DNA of 64,000 bases from an uncultured Eubacteriales bacterium (GTDB lineage Bacteria; Bacillota; Clostridia; Christensenellales; Aristaeellaceae): NCBI GenBank assembly GCA_902799045.1, contig CADBZH010000003.1, forward strand, positions 62,001 to 126,000. Direction: 5' to 3'. The translations under genes were made by a program, and so were the position numbers. The notes under the pieces are model-generated. The model ran no database searches, was not told the origin of the DNA, and saw only the letters and a program-made list of their open reading frames with translations. Below are positions 22,210 to 50,088 of the stretch, piece after piece. The first letter of the stretch is position 1, and every line of letters starts with the position of its first letter.

Positions 22210-22413
22210 GGAGTGAGGAGTTGCGGTACATATCCCTGCGGGATTTGTTTGATGAGTGGGGAATCCAGATTGCCCCGGCACTTCGTGCCTCGCAATGAAG
22301 GGGTTGGACGCAGATTCGATGGACGTCATTGCGAGGAGGCTCATGCAATGCGCCGACGTGGCAATCCGGTCCCCGGCAAACTTCAATTCCACACGCCACT
22401 CTCCACGCTCAAA
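22210..22413 (+). repeat. Composite intergenic element A (heptamer arms, inverted core)
   Basis: Left arm GGAGTGAGGAGTTG (22210-22223), a small hairpin (TATCCCTGCGGGATTTG), left core with GATTGCC...CGCAATGA (22257-22299), right core GTCATTGCGAGGAG...ACGTGGCAATCCGGT (about 22325-22371), and a decayed right arm (22387-22413). It fills the gap between moxR and the DUF58 gene and opens a spurious N-terminal extension to the latter. Confidence 0.75.
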
Positions 22414-22441
22414 ACAACAACGCGATACAAGGAACCAAACG

Positions 22442-23659
22442 ATGCAAGTTTTCAATTCCCGCCGCCTGGGCTGCGGCCTGGTGATGGCGGCGATGCTCGT
22501 CGCGGGGCTGAGCACGGGGGTGCGGTTTTACTACCTCATCTTCCTGGCGATGCTGGCGATGCTGCTGCTCGGGCTGATCGCGGCGCTGTGGACGCTGTTC
22601 ACGCTGAAGTTCGACATCAAGGGCGTGCGGGCGAGGGTGAACCGCGGCGAGCGCATGATGACGGTGTTCACCGTGCGCCACGGAAGCCTGCTGCCCGTGT
22701 CGGCCATTCGCGTGTGCCTGAACGTGCCCTCGGCCTATGCGCCCACCCAGGAGGTGAACGTCTCCTGCCCGCCCTTTGCCGAGCGCACCTTTCGCCAGGT
22801 GATCGCCTGCCCCCACCGGGGCGTGTATGAGGCGGGTGTGACCCGCATCAGCGTGGAGGATGTGTTCGGGCTGATCCGTCTGAGCCGCAACCCCGGCGCG
22901 AAGCTGGTGCGGCTGGAGGTGCTGCCGAAGGCCTGGGAGACGCCGCCGCTTCAGCTGAACAGCATCGACCAGGGGCCGGAATTCGCCAGCCGCGCGGCGG
23001 AGGACAACGCCTCGCCCTCGGACGTGTGCTCCTGGCAGGAGGGCGACGAGCTGAAGAAGGTGCACTGGAAGCTGTCCCTGCGCAAGCGGGAGCTGATGGT
23101 GCGCACCTATGAGGAGAGCGCCCGCCCCGACACGCTGATCATCCCGGACCTGGCCGAGATCACGGCCCTGCACGACCAGCAGCTGACGCTGGAGGATTGC
23201 GTGTGCGAGGCCTCCCTGTCGGCGGCACAGGCCCAGCTGAACGCCGGCTATCCGGTGCGGATGCCGCTGGTGGGGGCGCGGCCGGGGGAGATCGCCGGCC
23301 AGTTTCCCGCGGACCTTCCCGCCTTCTCCGAGGCGCTGCTGCGGGTGAAGTTCGACAGCCCCTATGGCTACGAGCAGGTGCTGACGCTGATGCTGGCCCG
23401 CTTCCAGCGCACCGGCGGCGCGGTGCTGGTGACGGCGCGGCTGACCACCCGCATCGCGGACATGGCCCTTCGGATGCAGCGCAGCGGCGTGGCGACGAAG
23501 CTGGTCTGGGTGTCCGACGACGCGCGCGACGACTCCATGGCGCTGATCGAGCGCCTGCGCATGGGCGGCGTGAAGGCCGAGCGCCTGGATCCCTGGGGAA
23601 GCGGCGGCACGGACGCCCGACGCCCCGAGGCGGTGCCTGACGATGAGTACGACGGGTGA
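22442..23659 (+). CDS. DUF58 domain-containing membrane protein
   Basis: 405 residues. Two membrane helices at the N-terminus (about 9-50), a small beta domain (RARVNRGERMMTVFTVRHGS), then the DUF58 signature CSWQEGDELKKVHWKLSLRKRELMVRTYEE (in two parts, about residues 197-226) and a VWA-like C-terminal fold (RPDTLIIPDL ... VTARLTTRIADMALRM). DUF58 proteins are the usual partners of MoxR ATPases. The ATG at 22442 with AAGGA upstream is chosen; the open frame before it is only repeat element A. Followed at 133 bases by the transglutaminase. Confidence 0.9.
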   Translation: MQVFNSRRLGCGLVMAAMLVAGLSTGVRFYYLIFLAMLAMLLLGLIAALWTLFTLKFDIKGVRARVNRGERMMTVFTVRHGSLLPVSAIRVCLNVPSAYAPTQEVNVSCPPFAERTFRQVIACPHRGVYEAGVTRISVEDVFGLIRLSRNPGAKLVRLEVLPKAWETPPLQLNSIDQGPEFASRAAEDNASPSDVCSWQEGDELKKVHWKLSLRKRELMVRTYEESARPDTLIIPDLAEITALHDQQLTLEDCVCEASLSAAQAQLNAGYPVRMPLVGARPGEIAGQFPADLPAFSEALLRVKFDSPYGYEQVLTLMLARFQRTGGAVLVTARLTTRIADMALRMQRSGVATKLVWVSDDARDDSMALIERLRMGGVKAERLDPWGSGGTDARRPEAVPDDEYDG

Positions 23660-23667
23660 GCCCCCTC

Positions 23668-23780
23668 CCCATCACCTTCGGTGACAGCGCTTCCCCTCAC
23701 GGATCGGGCCGGGCCTCTCCTTGACTCGCCCCGTGAGGGGGAGAGGTGCCCCGTGAGGGGCGGAGAGGGGGAAATCCCCT
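23668..23780 (+). repeat. GC-rich hairpin repeat (CTCCCC/GGGGAG type)
   Basis: Clustered inverted pieces between the DUF58 and transglutaminase genes, e.g. TCACCTTCGGTGA and repeats of CCCCGTGAGGGG. It resembles the CTCCCTCAG...GAGGGAG family seen again at 56565-56735. Confidence 0.55.
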
Positions 23781-23792
23781 TATCAATCAAGC

Positions 23793-26141
23793 ATGGCAAA
23801 CAAACTGACGAAAAAAGCGAAGATCACCCGTTCGGTGATTGCGGCGGTGCTGGCGATGCTGTTCGCGGGCAGCGCCGCTTCGGTGCTGGCCTCGGCCACG
23901 CGGATGGCGGCGCCTGCCGCCGGGCTGTATGTGGCGGCGGCGCTGTCGGCGGCGCTCGGGGCGCTGGGCGCGGTGTCCGGCACCGGCGCGGCCATCGCGG
24001 CGGGCGGCTTCGTGGCGCTGTCGGCGGGGTATGCCGCCAGCCACGCGGCGGGCCTTGGCGCGCTGCGGGCGCTGTTCGCGTCCTGGTCGGGCGCGGAGGC
24101 CGACGCGGCCCGGGCGGCGCTCGGTGGGCAGACGCTTCTGACGCTGGGCGCGTTCGTGCTGGGCGCGCTGTTTTTCGCGCTGCTGAACCGGCGCGAGCTG
24201 GTGACGATGGCGATCCTGCTGCTGCTGGCGGCGCTGGTGGCCTGCCACGCCTCCAGCGAGACGGCGTCCATCGCGGCGGCGGCGCCGGGCCTGATCGCGG
24301 CGGCGGCGGCGTTTGCGCTCACCGGCGGCGTTCAGCGGGACCTGTCGGCCCTGCGGGTGCTGGTCCCGGCGGCGCTGGCGGTGGCCCTGGCGCTGATCCT
24401 GCTGCCGGCGAACCGCGTCACCTGGCCGCCGCTGGAGCGCGCCGCCGAGCGGGTGCGCGCGGTGTTCGAGCAGTATTTCAGCTTCACCGAGGAGCGCGTC
24501 GCCTTTTCCATCGCCCAGGAGGGCTATGACCACGCCGGTCAGGTGGGGGAGAACGTGGTGACGATGCTGGGCGGCCCCGCCGAGCCGCACACCGACCCGG
24601 TGATGCGCGTGCAGACCCAGGCGGAGGCGCTGCTGCGCGGGGCGATCCGCACGGCCTACACCGGGTATTCCTGGGTGGACGCCGCGCCGAAGAACCGCTA
24701 TCTCTACTTTGACCTGACCCACGCCTCCATCCGCGACCGGGTGTTCAACCCGGGCTTCTCCGGGGACGGATCGGCGCTTTTGCGCACGGACGTGTCCGTC
24801 GAGATGCTGGACGCGGGCACCAGCACGCTGTTCGTGCCCTGCCGCCTGGAGCGCTTCAGCATGGACCTGTCCACTGCCGTCTACTACAACACGGCCGGAG
24901 AGATGTTCCTGACCCGGGACGTGCGGGCCGGAGACCGCTACAGCCTGCGGGCCATCCAGCCGGTGGCCGGCGACGCCCTGCGGGAGGCGGTGCTGCGCGG
25001 GGAGAGCGCCGGGGACGACCGCTACCAGGACGTGCTGGCCACGCACACCCAGCTGCCCGAGGGCATCGAGGGCGGCGTCTACGCGCTGACGATGGAGGTG
25101 ATCGCCGGGGCGGAGACCCCCTACGACCGCGCCGTGGCGATCATGGACTACCTGCGCCGGGAGATGCGCTATACCCTGGACGCCGACTATCCGCCCCAGG
25201 GGCGGGACTTTGTCTCCTGGTTCCTGCTGGACAGCCGCGAGGGCTATTGCAGCGCCTACGCCTCCGCGATGGCCGTGATGGGCCGCATCGCGGGCCTGCC
25301 GACGCGCTATGTCGAGGGCTATCTCGCCCGGCCGGGGCGGGAGGTGCTCACCGGCGAGGACGCCCACGCCTGGGTCGAGGTCTACTTCAAGGGCGTCGGC
25401 TGGGTGCCCTTTGACGCCACCGGCGGCGCGACGGGCCGCGCGAACGGCTCGGAGGATGGCCGGGACGCGCCCCGGGACGAGGACGGGCGGGAGGACGAGG
25501 CCCCTGCCGCGGGCATGGAGGGCAGCGACGTCGGCGCGGAGCCCACCCCGACGCCCAGCCCCACGCCCGAGCCGGAGGGCGGCGCCGGGGACAAGGGCGA
25601 GCCGACACCCGCGCCCGAGCCGGAGTCGCCGCCCGAGGACGAGCCGCAGCCGGAGGACCTGCCGCCGGAGGCACCGCCCGAGGATACGCGTCGCGACCAG
25701 CGATGGCTCGCCTGGCTGCTGGCCTTCGCGGTCCTGCTGGCGCTGCTTGCGCTGGCGGCGCTGTGGGTGCGGCGGCGGTTGGACGCGGCGAACCCCGCGA
25801 AGCTGGCGGGCGAGGCCGACACTGCGCGGCAGGCGGCGATGATCGTCTATCGCGCGAACCTGACGCTGCTGGCCCACATGGGGCAGACGCCCGTCAACGC
25901 CGAAACGCCGGAGGCCTTCGCCGCCCGGGTTTCCAGGCAGTTCAGGAACCCCGAATACGCCGAATTCACCCGCGCCGTGGCGGAAGCCAGCTATGGCAGG
26001 CGCGCCGTGGGCCGCGACGACATCGAGAACGGTCTGCGCGCCTACGCGGGCTTTTCCGCCGCCATGGGCCGCCGGGAAAGGCTGCGCTTCACGCTGACGC
26101 GCATCTTCCGCGGCCTGGGCGATTTTGAGCAGATCCCGTGA
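23793..26141 (+). CDS. Membrane-bound transglutaminase-like protein
   Basis: 782 residues. Several N-terminal membrane helices (about 12-210), an extracytoplasmic domain with the transglutaminase core, an acidic Pro-rich linker ([14 protein letters not shown]), one more helix near residue 640, and a cytoplasmic tail with a DUF4129-like look ([20 protein letters not shown]). The catalytic triad is visible: Cys in [14 protein letters not shown] (about 485), His in [12 protein letters not shown] (about 525) and Asp in VPFDATGG (about 540). It is the third gene of the MoxR-DUF58-TGase set, thought to act at the envelope. The ribosome binding site is weak and repeats lie upstream. Confidence 0.9.
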
Positions 26142-26144
26142 GGC

Positions 26145-26180
26145 AAAAAACGGGGACGCCGCGTTGTGCGGCGTCCCCGT
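26145..26180 (-). terminator. Rho-independent terminator of the GGDEF gene
   Basis: A perfect 13-base stem ACGGGGACGCCGC / GCGGCGTCCCCGT with a 5-base loop; six T follow on the minus strand. It lies between the convergent transglutaminase and GGDEF genes and may slow plus-strand transcripts too. Confidence 0.85.
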
Positions 26181-26196
26181 GGGATTCAACCGTCCG

Positions 26197-27258
26197 TTAT
26201 CGCCGTCTGCGATCCCGGCCCTCCTGGGCGTAGAAGTCCCGCTTGGCCTGATACATCGCCTTCTCCGCGGCGGCGGTGAGGGCGTGCATGTCCAGCTCGG
26301 ATTTCAGCTGGCTGGCGATGCCGGCGGAGATATAGTAATTCTGCCCGGCAAGGCGGGCGGCGATGTGGCCAACTCTGGCGTGCACGGTGTGCTCCGGCAC
26401 GTCCGTCGCGAAGCAGACGAACTCGTCGCCGCCGATGCGGTAGGTGTGGGCCTGGCCGAAGGCGTCCACCAGCTCCTTCGCCACGGTTTGCAGCATGACG
26501 TCGCCGGCGTGATGGCCCTTCGTGTCGTTCAGCTCGTGCAGGCCGTTCACGTCCACATAGAGGCAGGCGAGGCTGGTGCGGCAGTCCTGCGCGTAGGCGG
26601 GCAGGCGGCCTTCATAGTGGTTGCGGTTGTGCACGCCGGTGAGCAGGTCCGTCTCGCTCAGGTGCTTGATGCGGCGGCCCTGATAGAGCATGCGATATTT
26701 CGTGCGCTGCTGCAGCGTCTCCACCAGTATGGCGACCGCCCCGAAGGACACGCCGTTCCACAGGTCGTCCCAGGCGACAAAGGCGTCCTTGCAGGCAAAG
26801 GACATCGCGCTCAGCGTCGCCACGGCCAGCGCCGTCATCGCCGCCAGGCGAACGGGCCGGTCGCAGATCAGGAAGGGCAGGGCGAACAGCAGCACGATGC
26901 TGGTCACCGCGGGCAGCTCCGGGTGGATCGCCGAGATCGCCAGCGAGAACGCGTACAGCGTCCCCGTGAAGACGTACATCAGCGGCAGCGTCAGGCCCGG
27001 GCGGCCGGGCAGCAGATAATGCGCGCAGACCCAGAGGACCAGGTTGGCCCCCAGCATGATCAGATAGTACGTCTGGTTGATACTGGTCAGATCGCCCACC
27101 AGCGCGTTGGCTACCACCAGCGCCGCGAACGCCAGTACGGCCACCAGCGTATAGGTGTTCAGGTTCTTCGCGTTTTCGGCGCGGGCGTCGTCCGCCAGCG
27201 CGGCATATTCGCTTTTTGTCAGGCCCGCGTAAAGCAGCAGGTTCGCGACTTTGTCCAT
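26197..27258 (-). CDS. Membrane diguanylate cyclase (GGDEF)
   Basis: 353 residues. About six membrane helices occupy residues 35-185, then a short linker and a GGDEF domain. The active-site loop is intact, YRIGGDEFVCF (GGDEF at 276-280), as is the start DLLTGVHNRNHYE, so c-di-GMP synthesis is likely. I see no RxxD inhibitory site before the loop. The membrane part is of unknown family and would sense an unknown signal. ATG at 27258 has AAAGGAC upstream. It ends at a strong terminator. Confidence 0.9.
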   Translation of the reverse strand: MDKVANLLLYAGLTKSEYAALADDARAENAKNLNTYTLVAVLAFAALVVANALVGDLTSINQTYYLIMLGANLVLWVCAHYLLPGRPGLTLPLMYVFTGTLYAFSLAISAIHPELPAVTSIVLLFALPFLICDRPVRLAAMTALAVATLSAMSFACKDAFVAWDDLWNGVSFGAVAILVETLQQRTKYRMLYQGRRIKHLSETDLLTGVHNRNHYEGRLPAYAQDCRTSLACLYVDVNGLHELNDTKGHHAGDVMLQTVAKELVDAFGQAHTYRIGGDEFVCFATDVPEHTVHARVGHIAARLAGQNYYISAGIASQLKSELDMHALTAAAEKAMYQAKRDFYAQEGRDRRRR

Positions 27259-27404
27259 GACAGTCCTTTCGGTTTCGATCGTTCCAAACCTCCGTTGAGT
27301 TGCAAATCATTATGCCACCGGATCATTAAAGGGGAATGACGGCGGCATTAAATCGCGTGGAATTCTTCGCGCAGCCATTTAACCTTTCCGGCATCCGCGC
27401 CGTA

Positions 27405-27434
27405 TTGTCAAACGGCCGTTTTCTGTGGTATAAT
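27405..27434 (+). promoter_or_regulatory. SigA-type promoter of secA
   Basis: TTGTCA (27405-27410), 18-base spacer ending TGTGG, TATAAT (27429-27434). Confidence 0.8.
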
Positions 27435-27518
27435 ATGCGATAGGCTGTAATATGCCTGATTATGGCATTGCGCCGCCGAGCGCGTTCGGCGGCTTGCGGA
27501 TAGACTTCGGAGGTTACT

Positions 27519-30260
<2,742 letters not shown>

Positions 30261-30319
30261 GAAGCGGGGAAGGGGAAGCGGCGAGCAGGAAAGCCGGCAG
30301 GCGCGGCAGCCACTGTTCC

Positions 30320-30347
30320 TGCTCCCTGCTCCCTACTCCCTACTCCC
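30320..30347 (-). repeat. Heptanucleotide tract, GGGAGTA/GGGAGCA type (minus)
   Basis: Four units on the minus strand (plus: TGCTCCC, TGCTCCC, TACTCCC, TACTCCC) in the secA-prfB gap. It is the reverse orientation of the tract at 31483-31531 on the other side of prfB, so the two flank prfB as inverted arms. Confidence 0.8.
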
Positions 30348-30381
30348 TTATACAGACCATCAACATTCAGGATGTGATAAT

Positions 30382-31479: not shown

Positions 31480-31482
31480 GGA

Positions 31483-31531
31483 GGGAGTAGGGAGTAGGGA
31501 GTAGGGAGTAGGGAGTAGGCAGTAGGGAGTA
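31483..31531 (+). repeat. Heptanucleotide tract (GGGAGTA)7
   Basis: Seven units, six perfect GGGAGTA and one GGCAGTA, starting four bases after the prfB stop. Confidence 0.9.
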
Positions 31532-31576
31532 GGAGAACGAGGGGACAGGTATAGCGGCGGATTTGATGGAGGGAAA

Positions 31577-34472: not shown

Positions 34473-34545
34473 TACCCTGCAAATGACGGAAAGAGGCCTT
34501 TTGCGGAGAATTGGGAACGAGCGAAAGGCAGTAAGCCCCAAATAC

Positions 34546-34621
34546 GTACAGATCCTTCGCCGCGCCCAGGATGACATCGAACCAATGTCCTGTCATCCTG
34601 GGCGCAGCGAAGGATCTGTAC
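34546..34621. repeat. Inverted pair of the GTCATCCTGGGCGCAGCGAA repeat
   Basis: Two 31-base arms (34546-34576 and 34591-34621), complementary with one mismatch, around a 14-base middle. It lies between the convergent tsaD and foldase genes. The same family occurs at 56782-56850 and as a fragment at 14628-14645. Confidence 0.85.
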
Positions 34622-34639
34622 ATTTTGCCGGTCGCCTCG

Positions 34640-38675: not shown

Positions 38676-38689
38676 GTTAATTTTGTAGG

Positions 38690-38895
38690 TGAGGAGTGAG
38701 GAGCTTGAGTTGGCCAGGGGACCGGGTTGCCACGTCAGTCCATTCATGGACTTCCCCGCAATGACATGGTTCGGGAATGGATGGCTGTACGGCATACAGG
38801 GCGCAGCGCGCTGCAGTGCCATACGACGTCATTGCGAGGCCGCAGACCGTGGCAATCCGGTTCCCCGGCCATCTGTAGCGCCTGACTCCTCACTT
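38690..38895 (+). repeat. Composite intergenic element D (heptamer arms, inverted core)
   Basis: Left arm (38690-38706, GTGAGGAGTGAGGAG), left core GGTTGCCACGTCAG...CGCAATGAC (38720-38766), a different middle, right core GTCATTGCGAGG...GTGGCAATCCGGTT (38827-38863) and right arm CTGACTCCTCACTTC (38881-38895). It lacks the ATCCC/GGGAT hairpin of A, B and C. It separates ackA from yceD. Confidence 0.8.
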
Positions 38896-38900
38896 CAAAT

Positions 38901-40151
38901 TCACTTCGTGGCCAGCTCCAGCGTGTCGCGGGCGATGGCCAGCTCCTCGTTGGTGGGGATGACCCAGACCTGCACTTTGCTGTCGTCGGTGGATATCTTC
39001 GCCTCTTCGCCGCGCACCTTGTTGCGCTCGGGGTCCAGCTTGACGCCCAGGAACTCCAGACCCTCCAGGGCACGGGCGCGTCCGGCGGCGTCGTTCTCGC
39101 CGATGCCGGCGGTGAAGATGATGGCGTCCACGCCGCCCATGGCCGCGGCGAAGGAGCCGATGTACTTGCGCAGCACATAGCCCCACATGTCGATGGCCAG
39201 GATGGCGTTGGGCTCGCCGGCCTCATAGCGGGCGGTGACATTGCGCATGTCGGAATCGCCGGCCAGGCCCAGCAGGCCGCTCTTCTTGTTCATCATGTTC
39301 AGAACCTCGGTGGGGGCCATGTTCTTGCGGTTGCAGATGAACTCCACCACGGCGGGGTCCAGCGTGCCGCAGCGGGTGCCCATCACCAGGCCGTCCAGAG
39401 GCGTGATGCCCATGGTGGTGTCCACGCACTTGCCGTCCACGCAGGCGGACAGGCTGGAGCCGTTGCCCAGGTGGCAGATGATCATCCGGTTGCCCTTGGG
39501 CAGCTTAAGCAGCTCCTGGGCGCGGGAGGCGATGTAGCGGTGGCTGGTGCCGTGGAAGCCGTACTTGCGGATGTGCAGCTCGGTGTAATACTCATTGGGG
39601 ATGGCGTAGCGGAAAGCCTTGGGGGGCATGGTCTGGTGGAAGGCGGTGTCGAACACGGCCACCTGGGGCACGTCCGGCAGCACCTCCTGGCAGGCGCGAA
39701 TGCCCATCAGGTTGGCGGGGTTGTGCAGCGGGCCCAGCGGGATGTTCTCCTCGATGGCTTCGATGCAGGCGTCGTCGATCAGGCAGGACGCCGTGAACTT
39801 TTCGCCGCCGTGCAGCACGCGATGGCCCACCGCGCCGATCTCCTTCAAATCGGCGATGACGCCGGTGCCGGTCAGGTGCGCCTTGCCGTCGTTGGCGTCG
39901 TACTCGCTGGCGGTGCAATCCTTGCCCACCAGCACGCCCAGCACGATCTCCATGGCCTTGGCGTGGGTGTCGCACTTCTTCAGCTGCTTCTGCTTGATCT
40001 TCTGGCCGTCCCACTCATAGGTCAGGTCGGTGGTGGGGTCGACGGTGCCGATGCGCTCCACGAGGCCCTTGGCGATCACGGACTCGTTGTCCATGTCGAT
40101 CAGCTGGAACTTCAGGGAGGAGGAACCGGCGTTGATGACGAGGATCTTCAT
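38901..40151 (-). CDS. ackA: Acetate kinase
   Basis: Makes ATP from acetyl phosphate, releasing acetate; a main energy route of anaerobes. 416 residues. Motifs: MKILVINAGSSSLKFQLID, FDTAFHQTMP, HLGNGSSLSA, and the second ASKHA site FTAGIGENDAA. ATG follows AGGAG by eight bases. It comes 263 bases after pta on the same strand. Its stop is six bases from composite element D. Confidence 0.97.
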   Translation of the reverse strand: MKILVINAGSSSLKFQLIDMDNESVIAKGLVERIGTVDPTTDLTYEWDGQKIKQKQLKKCDTHAKAMEIVLGVLVGKDCTASEYDANDGKAHLTGTGVIADLKEIGAVGHRVLHGGEKFTASCLIDDACIEAIEENIPLGPLHNPANLMGIRACQEVLPDVPQVAVFDTAFHQTMPPKAFRYAIPNEYYTELHIRKYGFHGTSHRYIASRAQELLKLPKGNRMIICHLGNGSSLSACVDGKCVDTTMGITPLDGLVMGTRCGTLDPAVVEFICNRKNMAPTEVLNMMNKKSGLLGLAGDSDMRNVTARYEAGEPNAILAIDMWGYVLRKYIGSFAAAMGGVDAIIFTAGIGENDAAGRARALEGLEFLGVKLDPERNKVRGEEAKISTDDSKVQVWVIPTNEELAIARDTLELATK

Positions 40152-40406: not shown

Positions 40407-40414
40407 GTCCAAAC

Positions 40415-41517: not shown

Positions 41518-41538
41518 AGTTTTATCGATTTGTCGCGC

Positions 41539-42681: not shown

Positions 42682-42845
42682 CTTCAAAACCTCCTTGGGG
42701 GTCGTTGGTGTTTTTTTGTTTGCGGGGCTATTGTAGCCCGGGAACCTTGAAAGAGCCTTGAAGAAACAGAGATTGTTTGCGCGGTTCCATGCCGTCATCG
42801 GGCGCCGGCCCCTGTTGGAATCCGCGGAACGCCCGCGCTGACAGG

Positions 42846-42874
42846 TTGTGGAAAAAACCGTGATATGATATACT
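42846..42874 (+). promoter_or_regulatory. SigA-type promoter of the 4Fe-4S membrane protein
   Basis: TTGTGG (42846-42851), 17-base spacer, TATACT (42869-42874). Confidence 0.65.
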
Positions 42875-42912
42875 GGTCCCGAATCGATGACAAGATTTGT
42901 GAGGACAGAGAG

Positions 42913-43731: not shown

Positions 43732-43754
43732 CCACTCCGGTTTGCCGGAGCTGC

Positions 43755-43791
43755 GAGGGCGCGCCTGTCCGGGCGGTGAAGGCGCGCCCTC
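43755..43791 (+). terminator. Terminator-like hairpin
   Basis: GAGGGCGCGCC / GGCGCGCCCTC with a 15-base loop, 24 bases after the 4Fe-4S gene. No T-tract follows. Confidence 0.45.
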
Positions 43792-43830
43792 CTCTGTTCG
43801 ACCCCGTCACAAATGCGCCAACGGCGCACA

Positions 43831-43860
43831 TTGACACGGCGCGAGCGGGTGTATTATGAT
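43831..43860 (+). promoter_or_regulatory. SigA-type promoter of the Eis-like gene
   Basis: TTGACA (43831-43836), 18-base spacer, TATGAT (43855-43860), about 22 bases before the start. Confidence 0.75.
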
Positions 43861-43881
43861 ACTCCCATGGGAGGGATGGAC

Positions 43882-45093
43882 ATGATCGTACGCAAGATCC
43901 GCGAAAACGAACTGAAGCGCAGCGCGCAGCTGTCGGCGCTGGCCTTTGAATACCCGATGGAGGGCGCGGAAAAGTCGCCGGAGGCGTTCATTCGCGAGGT
44001 GCGGGAGCGCCCACGGTCGCTGGAGGACGCACGCTGGGACAGCCGCTGGGCGGCATTTGAGGACGACGATGAGACCATGATGGCCACCTTCTGCGTCCTG
44101 CCGTGGCACGCGACCTTCGACGGGCACGACGTCGTCATGGGCGGCATCGGCGGCGTGGCGACGCTGCCGCAGTACCGCCGGGGCGGGGCGATCCGCTGCT
44201 GCTTCGAGGCGGCGCTTCCGGACATGTACGCCCAGGGCATGGTGCTCTCGTATCTCTATCCGTTCTCCAACGCCTTCTACCGGCGCTTCGGCTATGAGAT
44301 CGCCTGCGACGAGGCCCGCTGGACGCTGAGGCTGGCGCTGCTGCCGTCGCTGGACGCGCCGGGGCGCTGGGCGATGCAGGAGCCGGGGCGGGATCTGACG
44401 GCCGATATCCGCGCCATCGACGAGGCCCGCAGCCGCCGCTACAACTGCGCGGTGCGGAAGGGGGACACGGAATACGACTGGACGGGGGCGGACCCGTTCG
44501 TCACCCGGAACTACACCTTCGTGTACTATGAGGACGACGCGCCGCTTGCTTACGCGACCATCCAGGCCCGGCCCCATGAGGACCTGCGGTGCCTGCGCTG
44601 CGGCTTCAACGACCGGCGGGGGCTGGAGGGGCTGCTGGCGCTGCTCAGGCGCTACGCCGCGGACCACGAGCGCGCCGTGCTGCCGATGCCCGTGGACGTC
44701 GACCCGAGGGCGACCCTGCCCGAATTCAGCCTCGGCGGCGTGGAGCGCGCCGTCGTCCAGCGCGGCATGGCGCGGGTGGTGAACGTGGAGCAGGCCCTGG
44801 CGCTGGCGAAGGCGAAGGGGGAGGGGACGCTGCGCGTTCGCGTCACCGACGGCCAGATCCCCGAAAACAACGGCGGCTTTGAGGTGCGCTTTGCTCCGGG
44901 CATGAAAAACGACGTCCGCCGAACGGACGCCGCGCCGGACGTGGCACTCACCATTCAGGATTTCAGCCGCCTGCTGCTGGGCTGCTGCGCCTTTGAGCCC
45001 GAATGGCTGCCGGGGGTGGCGCTGCACGGCGACATCGAAGGGGCCCGGAAGCTGTTCTATCCGAAGCCGAATTACATCACACAGCGCTTTTGA
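43882..45093 (+). CDS. Eis-like GNAT N-acetyltransferase with SCP2-like tail
   Basis: 403 residues in the three-part Eis layout: two GNAT folds and a C-terminal sterol-carrier-like domain. Features: MGGIGGVATLPQYRRGGAIR (the acetyl-CoA loop), SYLYPFSNAFYRRFGYEIAC, and the tail PDVALTIQDFSRLLLGCC (SCP2-like). The last residue is Phe (ITQRF), and in Eis of M. tuberculosis (402 residues) the C-terminal Phe carboxylate is the catalytic base with a Tyr; the tail and length match. Eis enzymes acetylate amines, including aminoglycosides. Starts at ATG 43882 seven bases after GGGAGGG. Confidence 0.85.
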   Translation: MIVRKIRENELKRSAQLSALAFEYPMEGAEKSPEAFIREVRERPRSLEDARWDSRWAAFEDDDETMMATFCVLPWHATFDGHDVVMGGIGGVATLPQYRRGGAIRCCFEAALPDMYAQGMVLSYLYPFSNAFYRRFGYEIACDEARWTLRLALLPSLDAPGRWAMQEPGRDLTADIRAIDEARSRRYNCAVRKGDTEYDWTGADPFVTRNYTFVYYEDDAPLAYATIQARPHEDLRCLRCGFNDRRGLEGLLALLRRYAADHERAVLPMPVDVDPRATLPEFSLGGVERAVVQRGMARVVNVEQALALAKAKGEGTLRVRVTDGQIPENNGGFEVRFAPGMKNDVRRTDAAPDVALTIQDFSRLLLGCCAFEPEWLPGVALHGDIEGARKLFYPKPNYITQRF

Positions 45094-45100
45094 GCAGAAG

Positions 45101-45152
45101 AACCGGATTGCCGCGCCGCCTCTTCGGGGAGGAATGTGGCAATCCGGTTTTA
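45101..45152 (+). terminator. Inverted repeat unit acting as a terminator (AACCGGATTGCC type)
   Basis: AACCGGATTGCC (45101-45112) pairs perfectly with GGCAATCCGGTT (45138-45149), then TT. It lies between the convergent Eis-like and proS genes. It is one unit of the dispersed family that also makes the cores of elements A-F. Confidence 0.75.
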
Positions 45153-45163
45153 CAAATACCTCT

Positions 45164-46891
45164 TTACAGCCGGCACTCCAGCTTTGCCAGCGCGTCGGTC
45201 ACGTACTTCACGACGAAATCCCCGGCCTCGTCCACGGGCAGGATCTCCTTCATGCTCTTGTCGCGGGTGGCGATCTCGATGGTGCCGTTCTTCAGGCCCT
45301 TCGGGCTGATGACCACGCGCACCGGCACGCCGAACAGGTCGGCGTCGGAGAACATGACGCCCGCGGAGACGCTGCGCTCGTCCCAGAGTACCTCCACGCC
45401 CTTCGCCGTCAGCGCGTCGTAGAGCTTCTGGCTGGCCTCCATGACCTCCGGCTGGTCGGCGCGCAGCGAGCAGATCTCAACGTGCCAGGGGGCGATGCTG
45501 ATGGGCCAGATGGGGCCGTAGTCGTCGCGGTGCGCCTCGCACACGCTGGCCGCCAGGCGGCCCACGCCGATGCCGTAGCAGCCCATGATCGGGTGCTTCA
45601 AGCTGCCGTCCTGGTCGACGTAGGTCATGTCCATGCTCTCGGTGTATTTGGTGCCCAGCTGGAAGATGTTGCCCACCTCGATGCCGCGGCTGGTGTAGAT
45701 GTGGGGCTTGCCGCAGACGGGGCAGATGCCGCCGTCGAAGGCCTTCGCCACGTCCACGTATTCCACGTCGCCGACGTCGCGGGCGATGTTGAAGCCCACG
45801 TAGTGCATGTCGTCCTCGCAGGCGCCGGTGGCGAACCACTCGATGCCCTCAAGGCTCCTGTCGTACACCACGGTCACGCCCTCGGGCAGGCCGATGGGGC
45901 CGGTGAAGCCGGCGTGGATGCCGGAAGCCTCGGTCACTACCGCGGGGTGCACCTCGGCCTTCAGGAAGTTGCGCAGCTTGGTCTCGTTCACGTCCAGATC
46001 GCCGCGGATGAACACGATCACGAAGGAATCGTCGGCGTTGCGCTGGTACATCACGGCCTTGCAGGTCTGCTTCGCGTCGATCTTCAGGAATGCGCACAGG
46101 TCCTCGATGGTCTTGCAGTTCGGGGTGGCCACCTTCTCAAGCGGCGCGATCTCGCCGGGCTCGTTGGTGAGCAGGCAGGGGGCCGCCTCCATGTTGGCGC
46201 GATAGTCGCAGTCGCGGCACAGCACGATGGTGTCCTCGCCGACGTCGGTCAGCAGCATGTATTCGTGGCTCACCTTGCCGCCCATCATGCCGGAATCCGA
46301 CGCCACGGCCACCACCTCCGGCACGCCGCAGCGGGCGTAGACGCGGTTGTAGGCCTCGTAGGCGCGGGCGTAGTATTTCTCCAGGTCCTCCTGGGAGGTG
46401 TGGAAGGAGTAGGCGTCCTTCATGGTGAACTCGCGCACGCGGATCAGGCCGCCGCGGCAGCGGGGCTCGTCGCGGAACTTGGTCTGGATCTGGTAGATCA
46501 TGAAGGGATACTGGGTGTAGGAATCGGCCACGTCGGTCATCAGGTGGACGCTGGCCTCCTCGTGGGTCATGCCCAGCACCATGTCTGCGCCGGAGCGGTC
46601 GCTGAAGCGCAGAAGCTCGCTGCCGATGCTGTCGTAGCGGCCGGACTTGCGCCACAGGTCCGCCGGCATGGTCACCGGGAAAAGCACCTCCTGGCCGTCG
46701 ATACGGTTCATCTCCTCGCGGATGATGTTTTCGATCTTGCTGGTGATGCGCTTGGTGATGGGGAACAGCGTGAAGATGCCGTTGCCCACGGGCTTGATGT
46801 AGCCGCCGCGCATCATCAGCGCCTGGGACGCGATGACGCAATCCGCCGGAGTCTCCTTGAAGCGCTTGGAAACGAGATTTCTGACCTTCAT
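45164..46891 (-). CDS. proS: Proline--tRNA ligase
   Basis: Charges tRNA-Pro. 575 residues, the bacterial form with the INS editing domain between motifs 2 and 3. Seen: VMRGGYIKPVGNGIFTLFPI-like start, motif 2 TKFRDEPRCRGGLIRVREFT, the INS stretch (KTIEDLCAFLKIDAKQTCKA), motif 3 CYGIGVGRLAASVCEAHRD and the anticodon domain. The ATG at 46891 has GGAGG eight bases upstream. It has its own promoter and a divergent patatin gene upstream. Stop is near the terminator at 45101-45152. Confidence 0.97.
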   Translation of the reverse strand: MKVRNLVSKRFKETPADCVIASQALMMRGGYIKPVGNGIFTLFPITKRITSKIENIIREEMNRIDGQEVLFPVTMPADLWRKSGRYDSIGSELLRFSDRSGADMVLGMTHEEASVHLMTDVADSYTQYPFMIYQIQTKFRDEPRCRGGLIRVREFTMKDAYSFHTSQEDLEKYYARAYEAYNRVYARCGVPEVVAVASDSGMMGGKVSHEYMLLTDVGEDTIVLCRDCDYRANMEAAPCLLTNEPGEIAPLEKVATPNCKTIEDLCAFLKIDAKQTCKAVMYQRNADDSFVIVFIRGDLDVNETKLRNFLKAEVHPAVVTEASGIHAGFTGPIGLPEGVTVVYDRSLEGIEWFATGACEDDMHYVGFNIARDVGDVEYVDVAKAFDGGICPVCGKPHIYTSRGIEVGNIFQLGTKYTESMDMTYVDQDGSLKHPIMGCYGIGVGRLAASVCEAHRDDYGPIWPISIAPWHVEICSLRADQPEVMEASQKLYDALTAKGVEVLWDERSVSAGVMFSDADLFGVPVRVVISPKGLKNGTIEIATRDKSMKEILPVDEAGDFVVKYVTDALAKLECRL

Positions 46892-46960
46892 TTGGATTTC
46901 CTCCCTGTACAATCAGCAGGCGCCCCGCCGCTTTGCAGGGGCGAGGCGCTTCATAGTTCA

Positions 46961-46988
46961 ATTATACCACAGGCATTTGATTATGCAA
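46961..46988 (-). promoter_or_regulatory. SigA-type promoter of proS
   Basis: TTGCAT (46983-46988), 16-base spacer ending TGTGG, TATAAT (46961-46966) on the minus strand. The leader of about 65 bases holds a GC hairpin. Confidence 0.7.
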
Positions 46989-47024
46989 GTGAAGTTTTTG
47001 GGAACGGGCCCTTGCATGGCGTGC

Positions 47025-47030
47025 TATAAT
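47025..47030 (+). promoter_or_regulatory. Extended -10 promoter of the patatin gene
   Basis: GCGTGCTATAAT, 22 bases before the ATG. The -35 region is poor. It is divergent from the proS promoter. Confidence 0.55.
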
Positions 47031-47051
47031 GGAGTTGAGCGAGGTGATACA

Positions 47052-48305
47052 ATGAAACGGGCGCTGGTACTGAACGGCGGCGGCAGCCGCGGAGCCTATG
47101 AGATCGGGGCCTGGCAGGCGCTGGAGGAGCTGGGCGTGCGCTTTGACGGCGTGTACGGCACGTCCATCGGCGCGCTGAACGCGGCGCTGTTCGCCCAGGG
47201 CGACCTGGACGGGGCCGTGAAGCTCTGGTCGAACATCACGGTCCGGCAGATCCTGTCCGTGGAGGACGAGGACGACTTTGCCATTGAGCGCATGATCCAC
47301 CGCAAGCGGGACGTGCTGCCCTTCCTGATGGAAAACGCCAGGCACCTGCGCATGGACATCTCCCCGCTGGAGGCGCTGGTGCGGGAGAACCTGGACGAGG
47401 GGCGCATCCGCGCCCGGGGGCTGCGGCTGGGCGTGCTCACCACCAGGGCGCCGCAGATGTCGGGCGTGGCGATGCGGCTGGATCAGATGAAGCCAGGCAG
47501 CCTGGGCGACTGGGTGATCGCCTCGGCCAGCTGCTTTCCCATCTTTCCCGCGCGTCACATCGAGGGCCAGCGCTACATCGACGGCGGCTACTATGACAAC
47601 CTGCCCATCGACATGGCCCTGGCGGACGGCATGGACGAGGTGGTGGCCGTGGAGCTGCACCCCTATCACAGCCACCCGGAATACGCCCGCATGCCCTGGC
47701 TGACGACCGTCAAGCCATTGCACGATTTGGGCGGGTTCCTGGATTTCGACCCGGCCCTGCTGCGCCGCAGCCGCCTGCTGGGCTACTATGACACGCTGAA
47801 AAAGTGGGGGCGGCTGGAGGGCTTTCTCTACAGTTTCCGCCGCGTGAACGACCTTTCGGCGGCGGAGCGCGCCCGGAGATACATGCGCCGGCTCACCGCC
47901 TTTGACGGCGAGCTGATCCGCCGCGGGGCCTCGAACCTCGGCCAGCCGGTGAACGCGCCGCTGCTGGCTGCCCTGGAGCGCGAGTGCGGGGGGAAGGCGC
48001 TGGAGTGGAAGGACGTGTGGCTGCGGGGCCTGGAGCTGTGCGCCGGGGCCATGGGCTTCCGGGTGGATGCCGTCTACGACGCCGAGGCCCTGCTGAAGCG
48101 CTGCCGGGATTTCTGCGCCGCCCAGGAGTTTGCCGAGAAGTTTGACGACGCGGGCCTGCAGGCCGTGGCGAAGCGGGGCAAGCGGGCGCTGCTGGCGTTC
48201 GTGGTTCGCCGCCTTGCCTCCGGCGAGCCCTTCCCGCCGGAGACCCTCCGCCGCCTGGCAGAGACCCCTGACGCCGTCGCCGGGGCCATGGCGCTCGTGG
48301 AGTGA
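47052..48305 (+). CDS. Patatin-like phospholipase
   Basis: 417 residues, about 290 of them in the patatin domain. Catalytic parts are complete: oxyanion loop LNGGGSRGAYEIG (residues 8-19), nucleophile Ser38 in GTSIG, and Asp near 178 in RYIDGGYYDNLP. It lacks a signal peptide, so it acts in the cytoplasm or at the inner membrane face, as YlbK/RssA-like acyl hydrolases. The C-terminal 120 residues are helical and unassigned. ATG 47052 has GAGGTG upstream. Its stop codon lies inside the first heptamer of element B. Confidence 0.9.
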   Translation: MKRALVLNGGGSRGAYEIGAWQALEELGVRFDGVYGTSIGALNAALFAQGDLDGAVKLWSNITVRQILSVEDEDDFAIERMIHRKRDVLPFLMENARHLRMDISPLEALVRENLDEGRIRARGLRLGVLTTRAPQMSGVAMRLDQMKPGSLGDWVIASASCFPIFPARHIEGQRYIDGGYYDNLPIDMALADGMDEVVAVELHPYHSHPEYARMPWLTTVKPLHDLGGFLDFDPALLRRSRLLGYYDTLKKWGRLEGFLYSFRRVNDLSAAERARRYMRRLTAFDGELIRRGASNLGQPVNAPLLAALERECGGKALEWKDVWLRGLELCAGAMGFRVDAVYDAEALLKRCRDFCAAQEFAEKFDDAGLQAVAKRGKRALLAFVVRRLASGEPFPPETLRRLAETPDAVAGAMALVE

Positions 48306-48523
48306 GGAGTGTGGAGTTGGGGTGCAGATCCCTTCGGGATCTGTTCTGATCAGGGGAGACTCGAATTGCCACGTCGCCGGAATCGCAGAGTTCCGTTCCA
48401 ATAGAAAAAACAGTCTGCGCATCGTACCACGTCATTGCGAGGAGATCCACAGGCCGACGTGGCAATCCGGTTCCCGGGCATTCTATAACTCCACACTCAT
48501 AACTCCTGATTCCTGACTCCTTC
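48299..48523 (+). repeat. Composite intergenic element B (heptamer arms, inverted core)
   Basis: Left arm GGAGTGA GGAGTGT GGAGTTG (48299-48319, carrying the patatin stop), hairpin AGATCCCTTCGGGATCT (48327-48343), left core AATTGCCACGTCGCC (48364-48378), right core GTCATTGCGAGGAG...ACGTGGCAATCCGGTT (48431-48472), right arm ACTCCAC ACTCATA ACTCCTG (48488-48523). It lies between patatin and spoIIR. Confidence 0.8.
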
Positions 48524-48535
48524 TCATCGACTTTT

Positions 48536-48565
48536 GAATAAACCGCGCAAGAATTGCCGACATTA
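48536..48565 (+). promoter_or_regulatory. Candidate SigF-type promoter of spoIIR
   Basis: GAATA (48536-48540), 15-base spacer, GCCGACATTA (48556-48565). The -10 fits the forespore pattern GgnrAnAnT well; the -35 is less good. Placement 33 bases before the start supports it. Confidence 0.4.
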
Positions 48566-48597
48566 GGAACAATTCCCAACGAAACGGAGGAATCGTT

Positions 48598-49140
48598 CTG
48601 AAACGTCGGCTTTTTTGTTGTTTTTTGCTGGTGATGCTGCTGGGCACGGCGGCGCGGGCGGAGCTCGGGCGGGAGGACGTGCCGGTGGAGGACTACATTC
48701 GATTGCACGTCGTCGCCAATGACGACGGCGACGGGGCCCAGGCCCTGAAGCTGGAGGTGCGGGACGCCTGCCTGATGTGCGCGCGGGCGCTGCTTCGGGA
48801 TTGCGTCGACGCGGACGCGGCCTGGGAAGCCGTGAACGACAACCTGAACCTCATCGAGCTCGCGGCGCTGTTGCGCGCGCGGATCTGCGGCTGGCAGGGC
48901 AGCGTGAAGGCGGAGACGGGCGTGTTCGACTTCCCGGACCGCCGCTACGGCGGGCTGCTGGTCCCGGCGGGGGAATACCGGGCGCTCCGGGTGGTGATCG
49001 GCGACGGCGAGGGCCGCAACTGGTGGTGCGTGCTGTTTCCGACGCTGTGCCTGGATGAAAGCTGCGCCCCGGACGCCCCGGTGGCCTTCCATTCCACGCT
49101 GCTGAGCTGGCTGCTGAGCGCGTTCGGAGGCGGGGCATGA
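48598..49140 (+). CDS. spoIIR: Stage II sporulation protein R, likely CTG start
   Basis: Signal sent from the forespore across the septum that triggers pro-SigE processing by SpoIIGA in the mother cell. 180 residues. The body VEDYIRLHVVANDDGDGAQA and FDFPDRRYGGLLVPAGEYRA and LRVVIGDGEGRNWWCVLFPT match the family well. A GGAGG at 48586-48590 places the start at CTG 48598, which gives a perfect signal peptide (KRRLFCCFLLVMLLGTAARA). No ATG, GTG or TTG fits as well; TTG 48625 would cut the signal peptide. sleB follows with a 4-base overlap. Confidence 0.9.
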   Translation: MKRRLFCCFLLVMLLGTAARAELGREDVPVEDYIRLHVVANDDGDGAQALKLEVRDACLMCARALLRDCVDADAAWEAVNDNLNLIELAALLRARICGWQGSVKAETGVFDFPDRRYGGLLVPAGEYRALRVVIGDGEGRNWWCVLFPTLCLDESCAPDAPVAFHSTLLSWLLSAFGGGA

Positions 49141-49808
49141 AAGCGCTTTGGCGCGCCGCGGCGCTGGCGCTGGCGGTGGTGACGCTGGCCGTGTGCCTCG
49201 CGCCGCCGGCCCTGGCGGTGCTGGAGGTGGGCTCCAGCGGCAGCGACGTGACAAAGGTGCAGAAGAAGCTGATCCAGTGGGGCTACCTCTCGGGCAGCGC
49301 CGACGGCAGATACGGCGAAAAGACCCGCCAGGCCGTCGTCGCCTTCCAGCGCAGGAACGGCCTGGCTGCCGACGGTCGCGTGGGCCCCGCCACCGCCGCC
49401 GCCATGGGCGTCACCCTCTCCGGCGGCAGCGTGACGGCGGCCTCGGCCTCGATCATCTCCGCCGACCACCGGCTGCTTTCGAAGCTGGTGTACGCCGAGG
49501 CCCGGGGCGAGACCTACAAGGGCCAGGTGGCCGTGGCGGCGGTGGTGCTGAACCGGGTGGCCAGCGCCTCCTTTCCCAACACCATCTCCGGCGTGATCTA
49601 CCAGTCCGGGGCGTTCAGCTGCGTCAGCAACGGCTCCATCAACAATACCCCCGACAGCACCGCCATCCGCGCGGCGCTGGACGCGCTGAACGGCTGGGAC
49701 CCCACCGGCGGCTGCCTCTATTACTATAACCCCAAGGCCACCGGCGACAAGTGGATCCGCACCCGCACCGTCAAGACCGTGATCGGGAACCACAGCTTCG
49801 CGGTATAG
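49137..49808 (+). CDS. sleB: Spore cortex-lytic enzyme SleB
   Basis: 223 residues. A signal peptide (LALAVVTLAVCLAPPALAVL), a peptidoglycan-binding domain (about 30-95, VGSSGSDVTKVQKKLIQWGY), and a C-terminal hydrolase_2 domain (about 115-223, LLSKLVYAEARGETYKGQVA ... GGCLYYYNPKATGDKW) that cuts cortex muramic-lactam during germination. The likely catalytic Glu is in VYAEARGE. Start overlaps the spoIIR stop (ATGA). Normally sits with ypeB, which here follows 309 bases later beyond element C. Confidence 0.95.
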   Translation: MKALWRAAALALAVVTLAVCLAPPALAVLEVGSSGSDVTKVQKKLIQWGYLSGSADGRYGEKTRQAVVAFQRRNGLAADGRVGPATAAAMGVTLSGGSVTAASASIISADHRLLSKLVYAEARGETYKGQVAVAAVVLNRVASASFPNTISGVIYQSGAFSCVSNGSINNTPDSTAIRAALDALNGWDPTGGCLYYYNPKATGDKWIRTRTVKTVIGNHSFAV

Positions 49809-49813
49809 TTTTT

Positions 49814-50088
49814 GGAGTGAGGAGTGAGGAGGCAGGAATGAGTTAGGAGTGAAGAGCTGCGGTGCAGATCCATGCGGGATTTGGCGGAATGATGGGGAAC
49901 CGGATTGCCACGTCAGCCCTGCGGGCTTCCTCGCAATGACGTTGCGATCGATCCATGTTTCATCGCTTAAGGAATGCCTTGATTCACTTCAAAACCACGT
50001 CATTGCGAGGAGCGGAGCGACGTGGCAATCCGGTTCCCGGGTATTTTATAATTCCACACTCCTAACTCGCTCCACACTCCTCACGCCC
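49814..50088 (+). repeat. Composite intergenic element C (heptamer arms, inverted core)
   Basis: Left arm of seven imperfect units (49814-49858), hairpin AGATCCATGCGGGATTTG (49866-49883), left core AACCGGATTGCCACGTCAG...CGCAATGACG (49898-49941), middle, right core CGTCATTGCGAGGAG...CGACGTGGCAATCCGGTT (49998-50036), right arm TCCACAC TCCTAAC TCGCTCC ACACTCC (50053-50086). It lies between sleB and ypeB. This is the most complete copy. Confidence 0.85.

What the first reader, a model, noticed from the sequence alone, without database searches (positions are those of the whole stretch)
22210..50088. Four composite elements: heptamer arms around an inverted GATTGCCACGTC/GTCATTGCGAGG core
At 22210-22413, 38690-38895, 48299-48523 and 49814-50088 the same order occurs: heptamer arm, (in A-C) a small GATCC/GGGAT hairpin, left core, variable middle, right core GTCATTGCGAGG...CGACGTGGCAATCCGG, then an arm in reverse (ACTCC). 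The flanks differ but the order does not. This looks like a MITE-sized non-coding mobile or replicated element with long terminal inverted repeats and a hypervariable middle. It has no transposase of its own here.
Basis: partly seen in the sequence, partly recalled or inferred. Interest (0 to 1): 0.72.

Follow-up and report, generated by a model that had tools for sequence, protein, structure and literature searches.

The report
Palindromic repeats nested inside other repeats
Four gaps between genes of an uncultured bacterium hold small non-coding repeats stacked like nesting dolls: a palindromic repeat pair of a kind found in many bacteria sits inside a second, independent repeat with seven-base arms, and what moves either one is unknown.

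Summary
The sequences are real but are not one MITE: two independent repeats are nested. The core is a pair of CGTC-tagged REP palindromes (121 of 138 halves CGTC, 15 TGTC). It hits 117 times in this 2.9 Mb draft genome, control 0, mostly without arms: 39 of 56 dimers are short-spaced and only 1 of these has both arms. The shell (inverted heptamer arms, often an AAATCC hairpin) is in 24 of 27 congeners, the core in 10. At the orthologues of C and D, 0 of 17 and 0 of 25 congeners have the core, while 3 and 4 have a two-armed shell; one encloses an unrelated GGGGACGG repeat. Between two 95%-identical congeners, all 12 resolved single-genome sites lack the core in the other. No Y1 transposase gene read is flanked by the core. 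Most likely both are non-autonomous palindromes mobilised in trans, cores landing inside shells (inferred). This extends Di Nocera 2013 (PMC3733652), where CGTC REPs lack a dedicated transposase; tags facing inward and interrupted stems depart from it. New variant of a known kind.

The parts
22205..22222 (+). Element A, left heptamer arm (GGAGT strand), right after the moxR-like stop codon (gene ends 22204)
   Evidence: gene by Pfam AAA_3
22232..22244 (.). Element A, ATCCCTGCGGGAT hairpin of the shell
22268..22298 (-). Element A, left REP half, diverged (GATTGCCCCGG...CTCGCAATGA)
22325..22366 (+). Element A, right REP half GTCATTGCGAGG...GTGGCAATC; gap between halves 27 nt
22387..22410 (-). 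Element A, right heptamer arm (ACTCC strand)
38688..38704 (+). Element B, left heptamer arm; no AAATCC/GATCC hairpin here
38725..38764 (-). Element B, left REP half (GGTTGCCACGTC...GCAATGA)
38828..38857 (+). Element B, right REP half; gap 64 nt
38883..38896 (-). Element B, right heptamer arm, about 5 nt from the acetate kinase stop codon (38901-38903, minus strand)
48298..48318 (+). Element C, left heptamer arm; overlaps the stop codon of the patatin-like gene (ends 48305)
48327..48341 (.). Element C, GATCCCTTCGGGATC hairpin
48364..48377 (-). Element C, truncated left REP half (GAATTGCCACGTCG only)
48431..48467 (+). Element C, right REP half
48488..48521 (-). Element C, right heptamer arm; next gene is spoIIR-like
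49814..49857 (+). Element D, left heptamer arm, about 5 nt after the sleB-like stop codon (gene ends 49808)
49867..49881 (.). Element D, imperfect GATCCATGCGGGATT hairpin
49903..49940 (-). Element D, left REP half
49999..50030 (+). Element D, right REP half; gap 60 nt; DNA fold of 49893-50040 is -52.5 kcal/mol, z -10.8
50051..50084 (-). Element D, right heptamer arm, upstream of the ypeB-like gene (50118)
60285..60389 (.). REP dimer without arms (gap 27), class I; left half diverged
63481..63563 (.). REP dimer without arms (gap 16), class I
5470..5513 (+). Heptamer array with no REP core within 250 bp
14540..14585 (+). Heptamer array with no REP core within 250 bp

Best explanation
Each element is a nested composite of two independent non-autonomous palindromic repeats. 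Inner part: a tail-to-tail dimer of CGTC-tagged REPs. Each half has a conserved basal stem (ATTGC/GCAAT), an interior loop and a hypervariable inner hairpin; in many copies the two halves can also pair with each other along 13-14 bp perfect stretches. Outer part (shell): an inverted-repeat element with GGAGTNN or GGAATNN heptamer arms, often with AAATCC...GGATTT hairpins, common in this genus. Shown: core and shell occur independently; inward orientation when joined; core-free orthologous sites; other cores inside the same kind of shell at orthologous sites; core presence differing between 95%-identical congeners; inner hairpins that keep pairing while varying. Inferred: both are copied from single-stranded hairpins by a trans-acting enzyme not encoded by the element, and REP dimers tend to land in the loop (centre) of the shell palindrome, which makes the order symmetrical. 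A-D abut a stop codon within about 6 nt and three of the four lie between co-directional genes, so they probably become part of mRNA 3' ends or intercistronic spacers. They are tolerated rather than needed, since the congeners compared lack the core at C and D.
For: Core: 117 exact hits, control 0. 56 inverted dimers with tags inside; within 150 bp only 5 neighbour pairs have tags outside. Tag CGTC in 121 of 138 halves, TGTC in 15. Inner hairpins: 69 unique cores, 303 of 332 Watson-Crick pairs (91%) against 75% mean and 82% maximum in 2000 same-length shuffles; central triplet GNA in 77 of 106 odd-length cores. Independence: core in 10 of 27 congeners, heptamers in 24 of 27. In core-free G003, G006 and G012, 28 of 28 neighbouring array pairs within 300 bp, from the part of the listing shown, are in inward +/- order. 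Other cores in shells: G010 at site D has heptamers, hairpins and GGGGACGG repeats; at the site of L335 G002 has arms plus a CGTC dimer, G019 has heptamer arms around another palindrome. Core-free sites: C 0 of 17, D 0 of 25 congeners. Turnover: G002 and G019 are 95% identical at sites C/D, 5 sites matched as shared among 22 and 13, and all 9 resolved G002-only and 3 resolved G019-only sites have no core tag in the other genome. Neighbour genes: moxR|DUF58-like, ackA, patatin|spoIIR, sleB|ypeB.
Against: No mobilising enzyme was found, so copying from ssDNA is not shown. In the five G002/G019 orthologue pairs the hairpin differences I read were single-sided or in loops, none compensatory, so pairing is kept over longer times or by replacement of whole modules. 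Complementarity of the outermost ends is not above shuffles overall (class I positions 4-10: 137 of 273 against a mean of 124; 130 of 2000 shuffles reach it). Core-free alleles often hold other sequence, or one arm, rather than a clean join, so replacement or loss competes with insertion. The reversed control of the heptamer pattern is not empty in all genomes (e.g. G014: 77 control against 231 matches). Outward-facing arm matches exist (5 of 15 long-spaced dimers, 1 of 39 short-spaced). Automatic gene context for the 56 dimers was unusable (29 of 56 'inside' ORFs, probably spurious in GC-rich DNA), so stop-codon adjacency rests on A-D only. The centre-of-shell rule rests on fixed order plus the few foreign-core cases.
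Confidence: 0.6

Rival explanations
1. One MITE family with heptamer terminal inverted repeats and a variable middle, moved by a DDE transposase that recognises the arms.
For: Arms are inverted on both sides in A-D; 9 of 15 long-spaced dimers have both arms and 13 of 15 at least one; inward orientation in 9 of 9 arrays near a core.
Against: 38 of 39 short-spaced dimers do not have both arms; shells without the core occur in core-free congeners; arm sequence varies (GGAGTNN, GGAATNN, AGAGTTN, GAGAATN); no target-site duplication was seen.
Confidence: 0.12
2. A REPIN system mobilised by a RAYT that has been lost or lies in an assembly gap of this genome.
For: Dimer architecture and copy number are REPIN-like; RAYT-like genes (about 250-300 aa) occur in 7 of the 10 core-carrying congeners against 6 of 17 core-free ones; this genome is only 93% complete.
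Against: The 14 RAYT-like loci held have GGGGACGG-type repeats (up to 1 substitution) on both sides; two weaker, shorter Y1 loci (L113, L114) have none and one. None of 29 Y1 loci has an exact core tag within about 1.5 kb; there are scattered matches with 1-2 substitutions, the nearest-looking one in core-free G016. G022 (133 cores) and G025 (3) show no Y1 match and G011 (104) a weak one. Of 30 Y1 loci from carriers in many phyla, 2 have an exact core tag within 1.5 kb (L315 on one side; L321 a 20-bit fragment) and 2 a tag with one substitution.
Confidence: 0.2
3. Functional RNA or DNA structures (terminators, mRNA 3' stabilisers) kept by selection, with repeats spreading by recombination only.
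For: Strong folds (z -8.5 to -10.9 for three examples); inner hairpins keep pairing; A-D abut stop codons; a 1.8 kb block shared with G002 shows recombination.
Against: Patchy presence (10 of 27 congeners), absence from every resolved orthologue of C and D, and turnover between 95%-identical congeners fit mobility better; no Rfam match at the gathering threshold in the window; sleB-ypeB is usually co-transcribed (recalled), so a terminator at D would be awkward.
Confidence: 0.08

Closest known systems
CGTC-tagged REPs (Di Nocera, De Gregorio, Rocco 2013, BMC Genomics 14:522, PMC3733652; abstract, sections 6, 7, 14 and passages seen), which include Neisseria dRS3 and Rickettsia RPE-4/RPE-6
   Same: Unpaired CGTC (or TGTC) tag before a stem that begins with AT; short tail after the stem; inverted dimers with spacers of tens of bp; heterodimers; no dedicated transposase. 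REP dimers or elements inside palindromes are reported for three families there (one of them CGTC).
   Different: Here the tags face inward (TT dimers; HH predominate there, TT are rare). The stem is 5 bp, an interior loop, then a variable hairpin, not 8-9 bp with a 4-5 nt loop. The tail is mostly CCGG, not CCA. The enclosing shell has tandem-heptamer arms, occurs alone and can hold another repeat class (there, host palindromes without REP were not found for A. variabilis and H. neapolitanus but were for T. roseum). The words Clostridi and Firmicutes do not occur in its main text.
REPINs with RAYT (Bertels and Rainey 2011, PMC3116915; seen only in a search listing)
   Same: Non-autonomous inverted pair of REPs, many copies, no transposase inside (general knowledge of the family recalled).
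   Different: The RAYT-like loci held from this genus border a different repeat (GGGGACGG); none has this core beside it.
Cyanobacterial heptamer repeats (STRR) and small dispersed repeats of Nostoc (Elhai et al. 2008; recalled; not among the 20 of 122 and 12 of 2120 papers listed)
   Same: Tandem heptamers that host small structured repeats, nested insertions, compensatory changes (as recalled).
   Different: Here the heptamers form inverted arms of an element in a Clostridia genus; the hosted repeat is a CGTC REP dimer. Sequences were not compared.
MITEs
   Same: About 100-280 bp, non-coding, terminal inverted repeats.
   Different: Arms are variable heptamer arrays, no target-site duplication seen, no matching transposase known.

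Membership tests
CGTC-tagged REP | Unpaired CGTC (TGTC/CCTC variants) tag at one end | tested here: met
   CGTC in 121 of 138 halves, TGTC in 15, other in 2; the TC is part of the search pattern, the two bases before it are free
CGTC-tagged REP | Complementary AT at stem positions 1-2 | tested here: met
   ATTGC/GCAAT at the stem base; part of the search pattern itself, so a weak test
CGTC-tagged REP | Stem of 8-9 bp with a 4-5 nt loop | tested here: not met
   5 bp, then interior loop GAGG(A)/(GA)CGTG, then a variable hairpin of 7-21 nt
CGTC-tagged REP | Unpaired tail, mostly CCA | tested here: inconclusive
   After GCAAT: CCGG in 112 of 138, CTGG in 20
CGTC-tagged REP | HH dimers (tags outside) predominate, TT rare | tested here: not met
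   56 dimers with tags inside (TT) against 5 tags-outside neighbour pairs within 150 bp (HH/TT as defined)
CGTC-tagged REP | No transposase gene bordered by the repeat | tested here: met
   No exact core tag near 29 Y1 loci of relatives; 2 of 30 multi-phylum Y1 loci have one nearby, neither on both sides. Other transposase classes were not searched
REPIN/RAYT | RAYT gene flanked by the same REP | tested here: not met
   14 of 14 RAYT-like loci held flanked by GGGGACGG-type repeats; Y1 in the own genome only as fragments
REPIN/RAYT | Inverted REP pair as the unit that spreads | tested here: met
   56 dimers, gaps clustered at 25-28 (37 dimers) and 58-67 nt (15); presence/absence differences between G002 and G019. 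Movement itself was not observed
MITE (DDE) | Target-site duplication | tested here: not met
   None seen at A-D or in the G002/G019 alignments read; boundaries of arm arrays are fuzzy
MITE (DDE) | Transposase gene with matching ends | not tested
   Only Y1 transposases were searched; two long-distance core pairs were inspected and I saw no transposase (by reading translations)
Nostoc SDR/STRR | Heptamer tandem repeats hosting small structured repeats | tested here: met
   Works like it: heptamer arms around cores. Sequence relation to the Nostoc families was not tested; the family features are recalled

The most novel reading that the evidence does not exclude
The heptamer-armed shell is a non-coding mobile element in its own right, with no known transposase, whose palindrome centre is a landing pad for unrelated repeats (CGTC REP dimers here, GGGGACGG RAYT-type repeats and another palindrome in congeners). 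Symmetrical composites are thus built by palindrome-in-palindrome insertion. If so, structure (a cruciform or hairpin tip) rather than sequence chooses the target, and the orphan CGTC REPs and heptamer repeats could share one unknown mobilisation route.
Probability: 0.3. Interest if true: 0.72.

Novelty: new variant of a known kind. Interest (0 to 1): 0.5.

Why it matters
CGTC REPs were left in 2013 as repeats without an enzyme. This genus gives a usable test bed: 28 genomes, 11 with the core and 17 without, conserved gene order at the loci tested, and a 95%-identical pair that differs at every resolved single-genome site. Enzyme candidates, insertion preferences and the role of the host palindrome can be tested there. 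It also links heptamer tandem repeats, a puzzle best known from cyanobacteria (recalled), to inverted-arm elements that host REPs.

Tried and rejected
Rejected: a RAYT as partner of the core. Rejected: transposase genes between distant inverted halves; C8:94009-95642 and C19:12425-15268 hold what I read as ordinary genes (no family search was run on them). Rejected: Rfam families (0 matches in the window). Rejected: complementarity of the outermost ends within a copy as a general feature; not above shuffles overall. Led nowhere: the first palindrome statistic used a wrong register (35% against 34%); redone, where 130 of 137 parsed segments (of 138 halves) could be assigned a core and the rest were dropped. 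Led nowhere: automatic gene context. A first merge of loci used a wrong orientation and was redone. Literature: a text search for TCATTGCGAGG gave 8 papers, by their titles unrelated (none opened); dRS3 with Piv or IS110 gave 81 papers, 8 listed, none opened, and IS110-type recombinases as movers remain untested. GCGAAGC with mini-hairpin gave 13 papers, 8 listed, none opened; that d(GCGAAGC) is an unusually stable DNA mini-hairpin is recalled.

Limits: one search listed 100 of 117 places; the stretches analysed lie around those and around heptamer hits (58 merged stretches, 280 kb), so counts over them are not whole-genome counts. Loci were read for only part of the Y1 matches (29 and 30). 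In one search the loose GGGGACGGT pattern also flagged five spacers without a two-armed shell (G021 at C; G014, G011, G017, G012 at D), probably chance or other palindromes; G010 was also read directly. Of the sites typed, L327, L346, L349 and L352 could not be resolved (flanks in repeats, unlinked or cut).
Full report
What is there. The four stretches are as described in outline. Each has GGAGT-type heptamers on the left, ACTCC-type on the right, and between them a left and a right core around a variable middle. All four lie within about 6 nt of a stop codon (C overlaps it): A after a moxR-like gene and before a DUF58-like gene, B at the 3' end of ackA, C between a patatin-like gene and spoIIR, D between sleB- and ypeB-like genes (the DUF58 match is just below its cut-off).

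Genome-wide. The window is part of a 2.9 Mb, 93% complete draft genome. The pattern GTCATTGCGAGG-N0-30-GTGGCAATC hits 117 times, its reversed control 0. In 58 merged stretches (280 kb) around the listed hits, a relaxed scan finds 138 halves and 56 inverted dimers with the tags inside: 39 with gaps of 16-28 nt, 15 with 58-67 nt, and two with 130 and 150 nt. In each of the 56 dimers the two halves differ from each other. Within 150 bp there are also 5 neighbour pairs with tags outside, 2 in direct + order and 1 in direct - order.

Anatomy of a core. Each half reads CGTC-ATTGC-GAGG-[hairpin]-CGTG-GCAAT-CCGG. The tag is CGTC in 121 of 138 and TGTC in 15. The inner hairpin is hypervariable but stays paired: 69 unique cores, 303 of 332 Watson-Crick pairs against a mean of 75% and maximum of 82% in 2000 shuffles within length classes. 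The central triplet is GNA in 77 of 106 odd-length cores, and AGCGAAGCGA is the commonest segment (23 of 137). Three examples fold as DNA with z-scores of -8.5 to -10.9, the two halves pairing with each other. That pairing is partly a consequence of the halves being inverted copies.

Arms and cores are separate systems. With a loose arm pattern, both arms are found in 9 of 15 long-spaced dimers and at least one in 13 of 15, but both in only 1 of 39 short-spaced dimers (element A) and at least one in 7 of 39; of the two widest dimers one has both. Outward-facing matches were also seen, at 5 of 15 long-spaced and 1 of 39 short-spaced dimers. Of 32 heptamer arrays in the fetched stretches, 9 lie within 250 bp of a core and all 9 point inward; 23 have no core. 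Across the genus the core is in 10 of 27 congeners and heptamer matches in 24 of 27, with the highest count in core-free G001 (matches overlap within arrays, some counts are as low as 1, and the reversed control is 0 to 77 per genome, highest in G014 against 231 matches). Outside the genus, 2 of 32 relatives have the core and 4 of 32 have heptamers. In the part of the listing shown for core-free G003, G006 and G012, 28 of 28 neighbouring array pairs within 300 bp are in +/- order, so the inverted-arm shell exists on its own.

Orthologous sites. All 28 genus genomes match the C/D region, in the listed cases in syntenic pieces. Of the congeners in which both flanks could be aligned, 0 of 17 at C and 0 of 25 at D have the core; 3 of 17 and 4 of 25 have both arms, 3 of 17 and 4 of 25 one arm by a loose pattern (some one-arm calls are soft, e.g. 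G025 at C, G005 and G014 at D). Read directly: G022, G025 and G020 at D have -2 to 12 extra bases; G014, G002 and G019 at C have heptamers and AAATCC hairpins without the core; G010 at D has the shell around GGGGACGG repeats; G008 and G001 at D have heptamer arms around other sequence.

A close pair. G002 and G019 are 95% identical at C/D, yet by flanks only 5 sites matched as shared among 22 and 13 fetched. Ten G002-only and five to six G019-only sites were looked up in the other genome. Nine and three could be resolved, and in all twelve the partner has no core tag (up to 2 substitutions) between the flanks. Some partners are short (L330, L334), one keeps heptamer arms of one orientation (L323), several hold other sequence of similar length or more (L324, L328, L347, L350, L351; the partner of L350 also has one GTGGCAATC-like match). 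At L335 G002 has arms around a CGTC dimer whereas G019 has heptamer arms around a different palindrome. No duplication was seen in the alignments read (parts of its output were cut from view). In the five shared pairs the hairpin differences read were single-sided or in loops.

No enzyme found. In the own genome Y1 transposases occur only as fragments that I read as broken IS200-like pieces. Among 60 genomes (own one included) 25 have a Y1 match. The 14 RAYT-like loci held have GGGGACGG-type repeats on both sides; two weaker Y1 loci do not. None of 29 Y1 loci has an exact core tag beside it, only scattered matches with 1-2 substitutions. RAYT-like genes are in 7 of 10 core carriers and 6 of 17 non-carriers, which leaves room for a weak association. 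In 50 core-carrying genomes of many groups 31 have a Y1 match; of the 30 loci read two have an exact core tag within 1.5 kb, neither on both sides. This agrees with Di Nocera et al. 2013 (abstract, sections and passages seen), who found no transposase gene flanked by CGTC repeats.

Distribution. In 398 genomes drawn from the phylum, 2 have the exact pattern, one being this genome. The scan of GTDB genomes stopped at its limit with 114 stretches, from records titled Comamonadaceae, Oscillospiraceae, Bacteroidetes, Chloroflexi, Riflebacteria, Thermodesulfovibrionales, Rickettsiales, Patescibacteria, Treponema, Azoarcus and others. An 8 kb locus of a record titled uncultured Clostridiales bacterium isolate RUG311 lies wholly within a contig of congener G022; that RUG genomes come from the rumen is recalled.

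Interpretation. The core works like, and in tag and stem base matches, a CGTC-tagged REP. It departs in dimer orientation (tags inside, called TT in that paper, against predominant HH) and in its interrupted stem. The same paper reports REP dimers or elements inside palindromes in three families; host palindromes without REPs were not found in A. variabilis and H. neapolitanus but occur in hundreds in T. roseum. Here the enclosing palindrome has heptamer arms, occurs alone and can hold other cores. The simplest reading is nested insertion of non-autonomous palindromes, REPs landing in the centre of the shell. That last step is inferred from fixed order plus a few foreign-core cases. How either part moves is not shown.

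Noticed in passing
L081:2116-3916 (own genome C3:161915-163715) and L333: This 1.8 kb stretch is 96.7% identical to G002 although sites C/D are about 84-85% identical between the two genomes; it suggests recombination or transfer between species, carrying a REP dimer along.
   Followed up: partly
window 34541-34626 and 56824-56859: A second repeat, TGTCATCCTGAGCGCAGCGAAGGATCTGTACA, as an inverted pair and a further copy; similar layout (GTCA tag, GCGCAGC-type loop) but another stem.
   Followed up: no
window 7536-7590 and 45098-45151: Palindromes that look like the outer stem of the core alone (AACCGGATTGCC...GGCAATCCGGTTTT or similar), possibly central-deletion derivatives working as terminators.
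   Followed up: no
window 31481-31533, 51461-51505, 30318-30348: TAGGGAG-type heptamer arrays; 13 of 18 pure TAGGGAG arrays in the fetched stretches have no core within 250 bp.
   Followed up: partly
L064 (C20, about 12480-12812) and L032 (C10:8478): Fragments that look like broken IS200-like transposase genes, the only Y1 matches in this genome.
   Followed up: partly
Y1 loci L102-L108, L110-L112, L117-L120: RAYT-like genes of the genus and family are bordered on both sides by GGGGACGG-type repeats, 14 of 14 loci held.
   Followed up: yes
L366 against L335: At one orthologous site two 95%-identical congeners have heptamer arms around different cores.
   Followed up: partly
window 3656-4087 and 11042-12571: 72-bp tandem repeats and a long repeat region rich in GAC/GAG triplets.
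   Followed up: no
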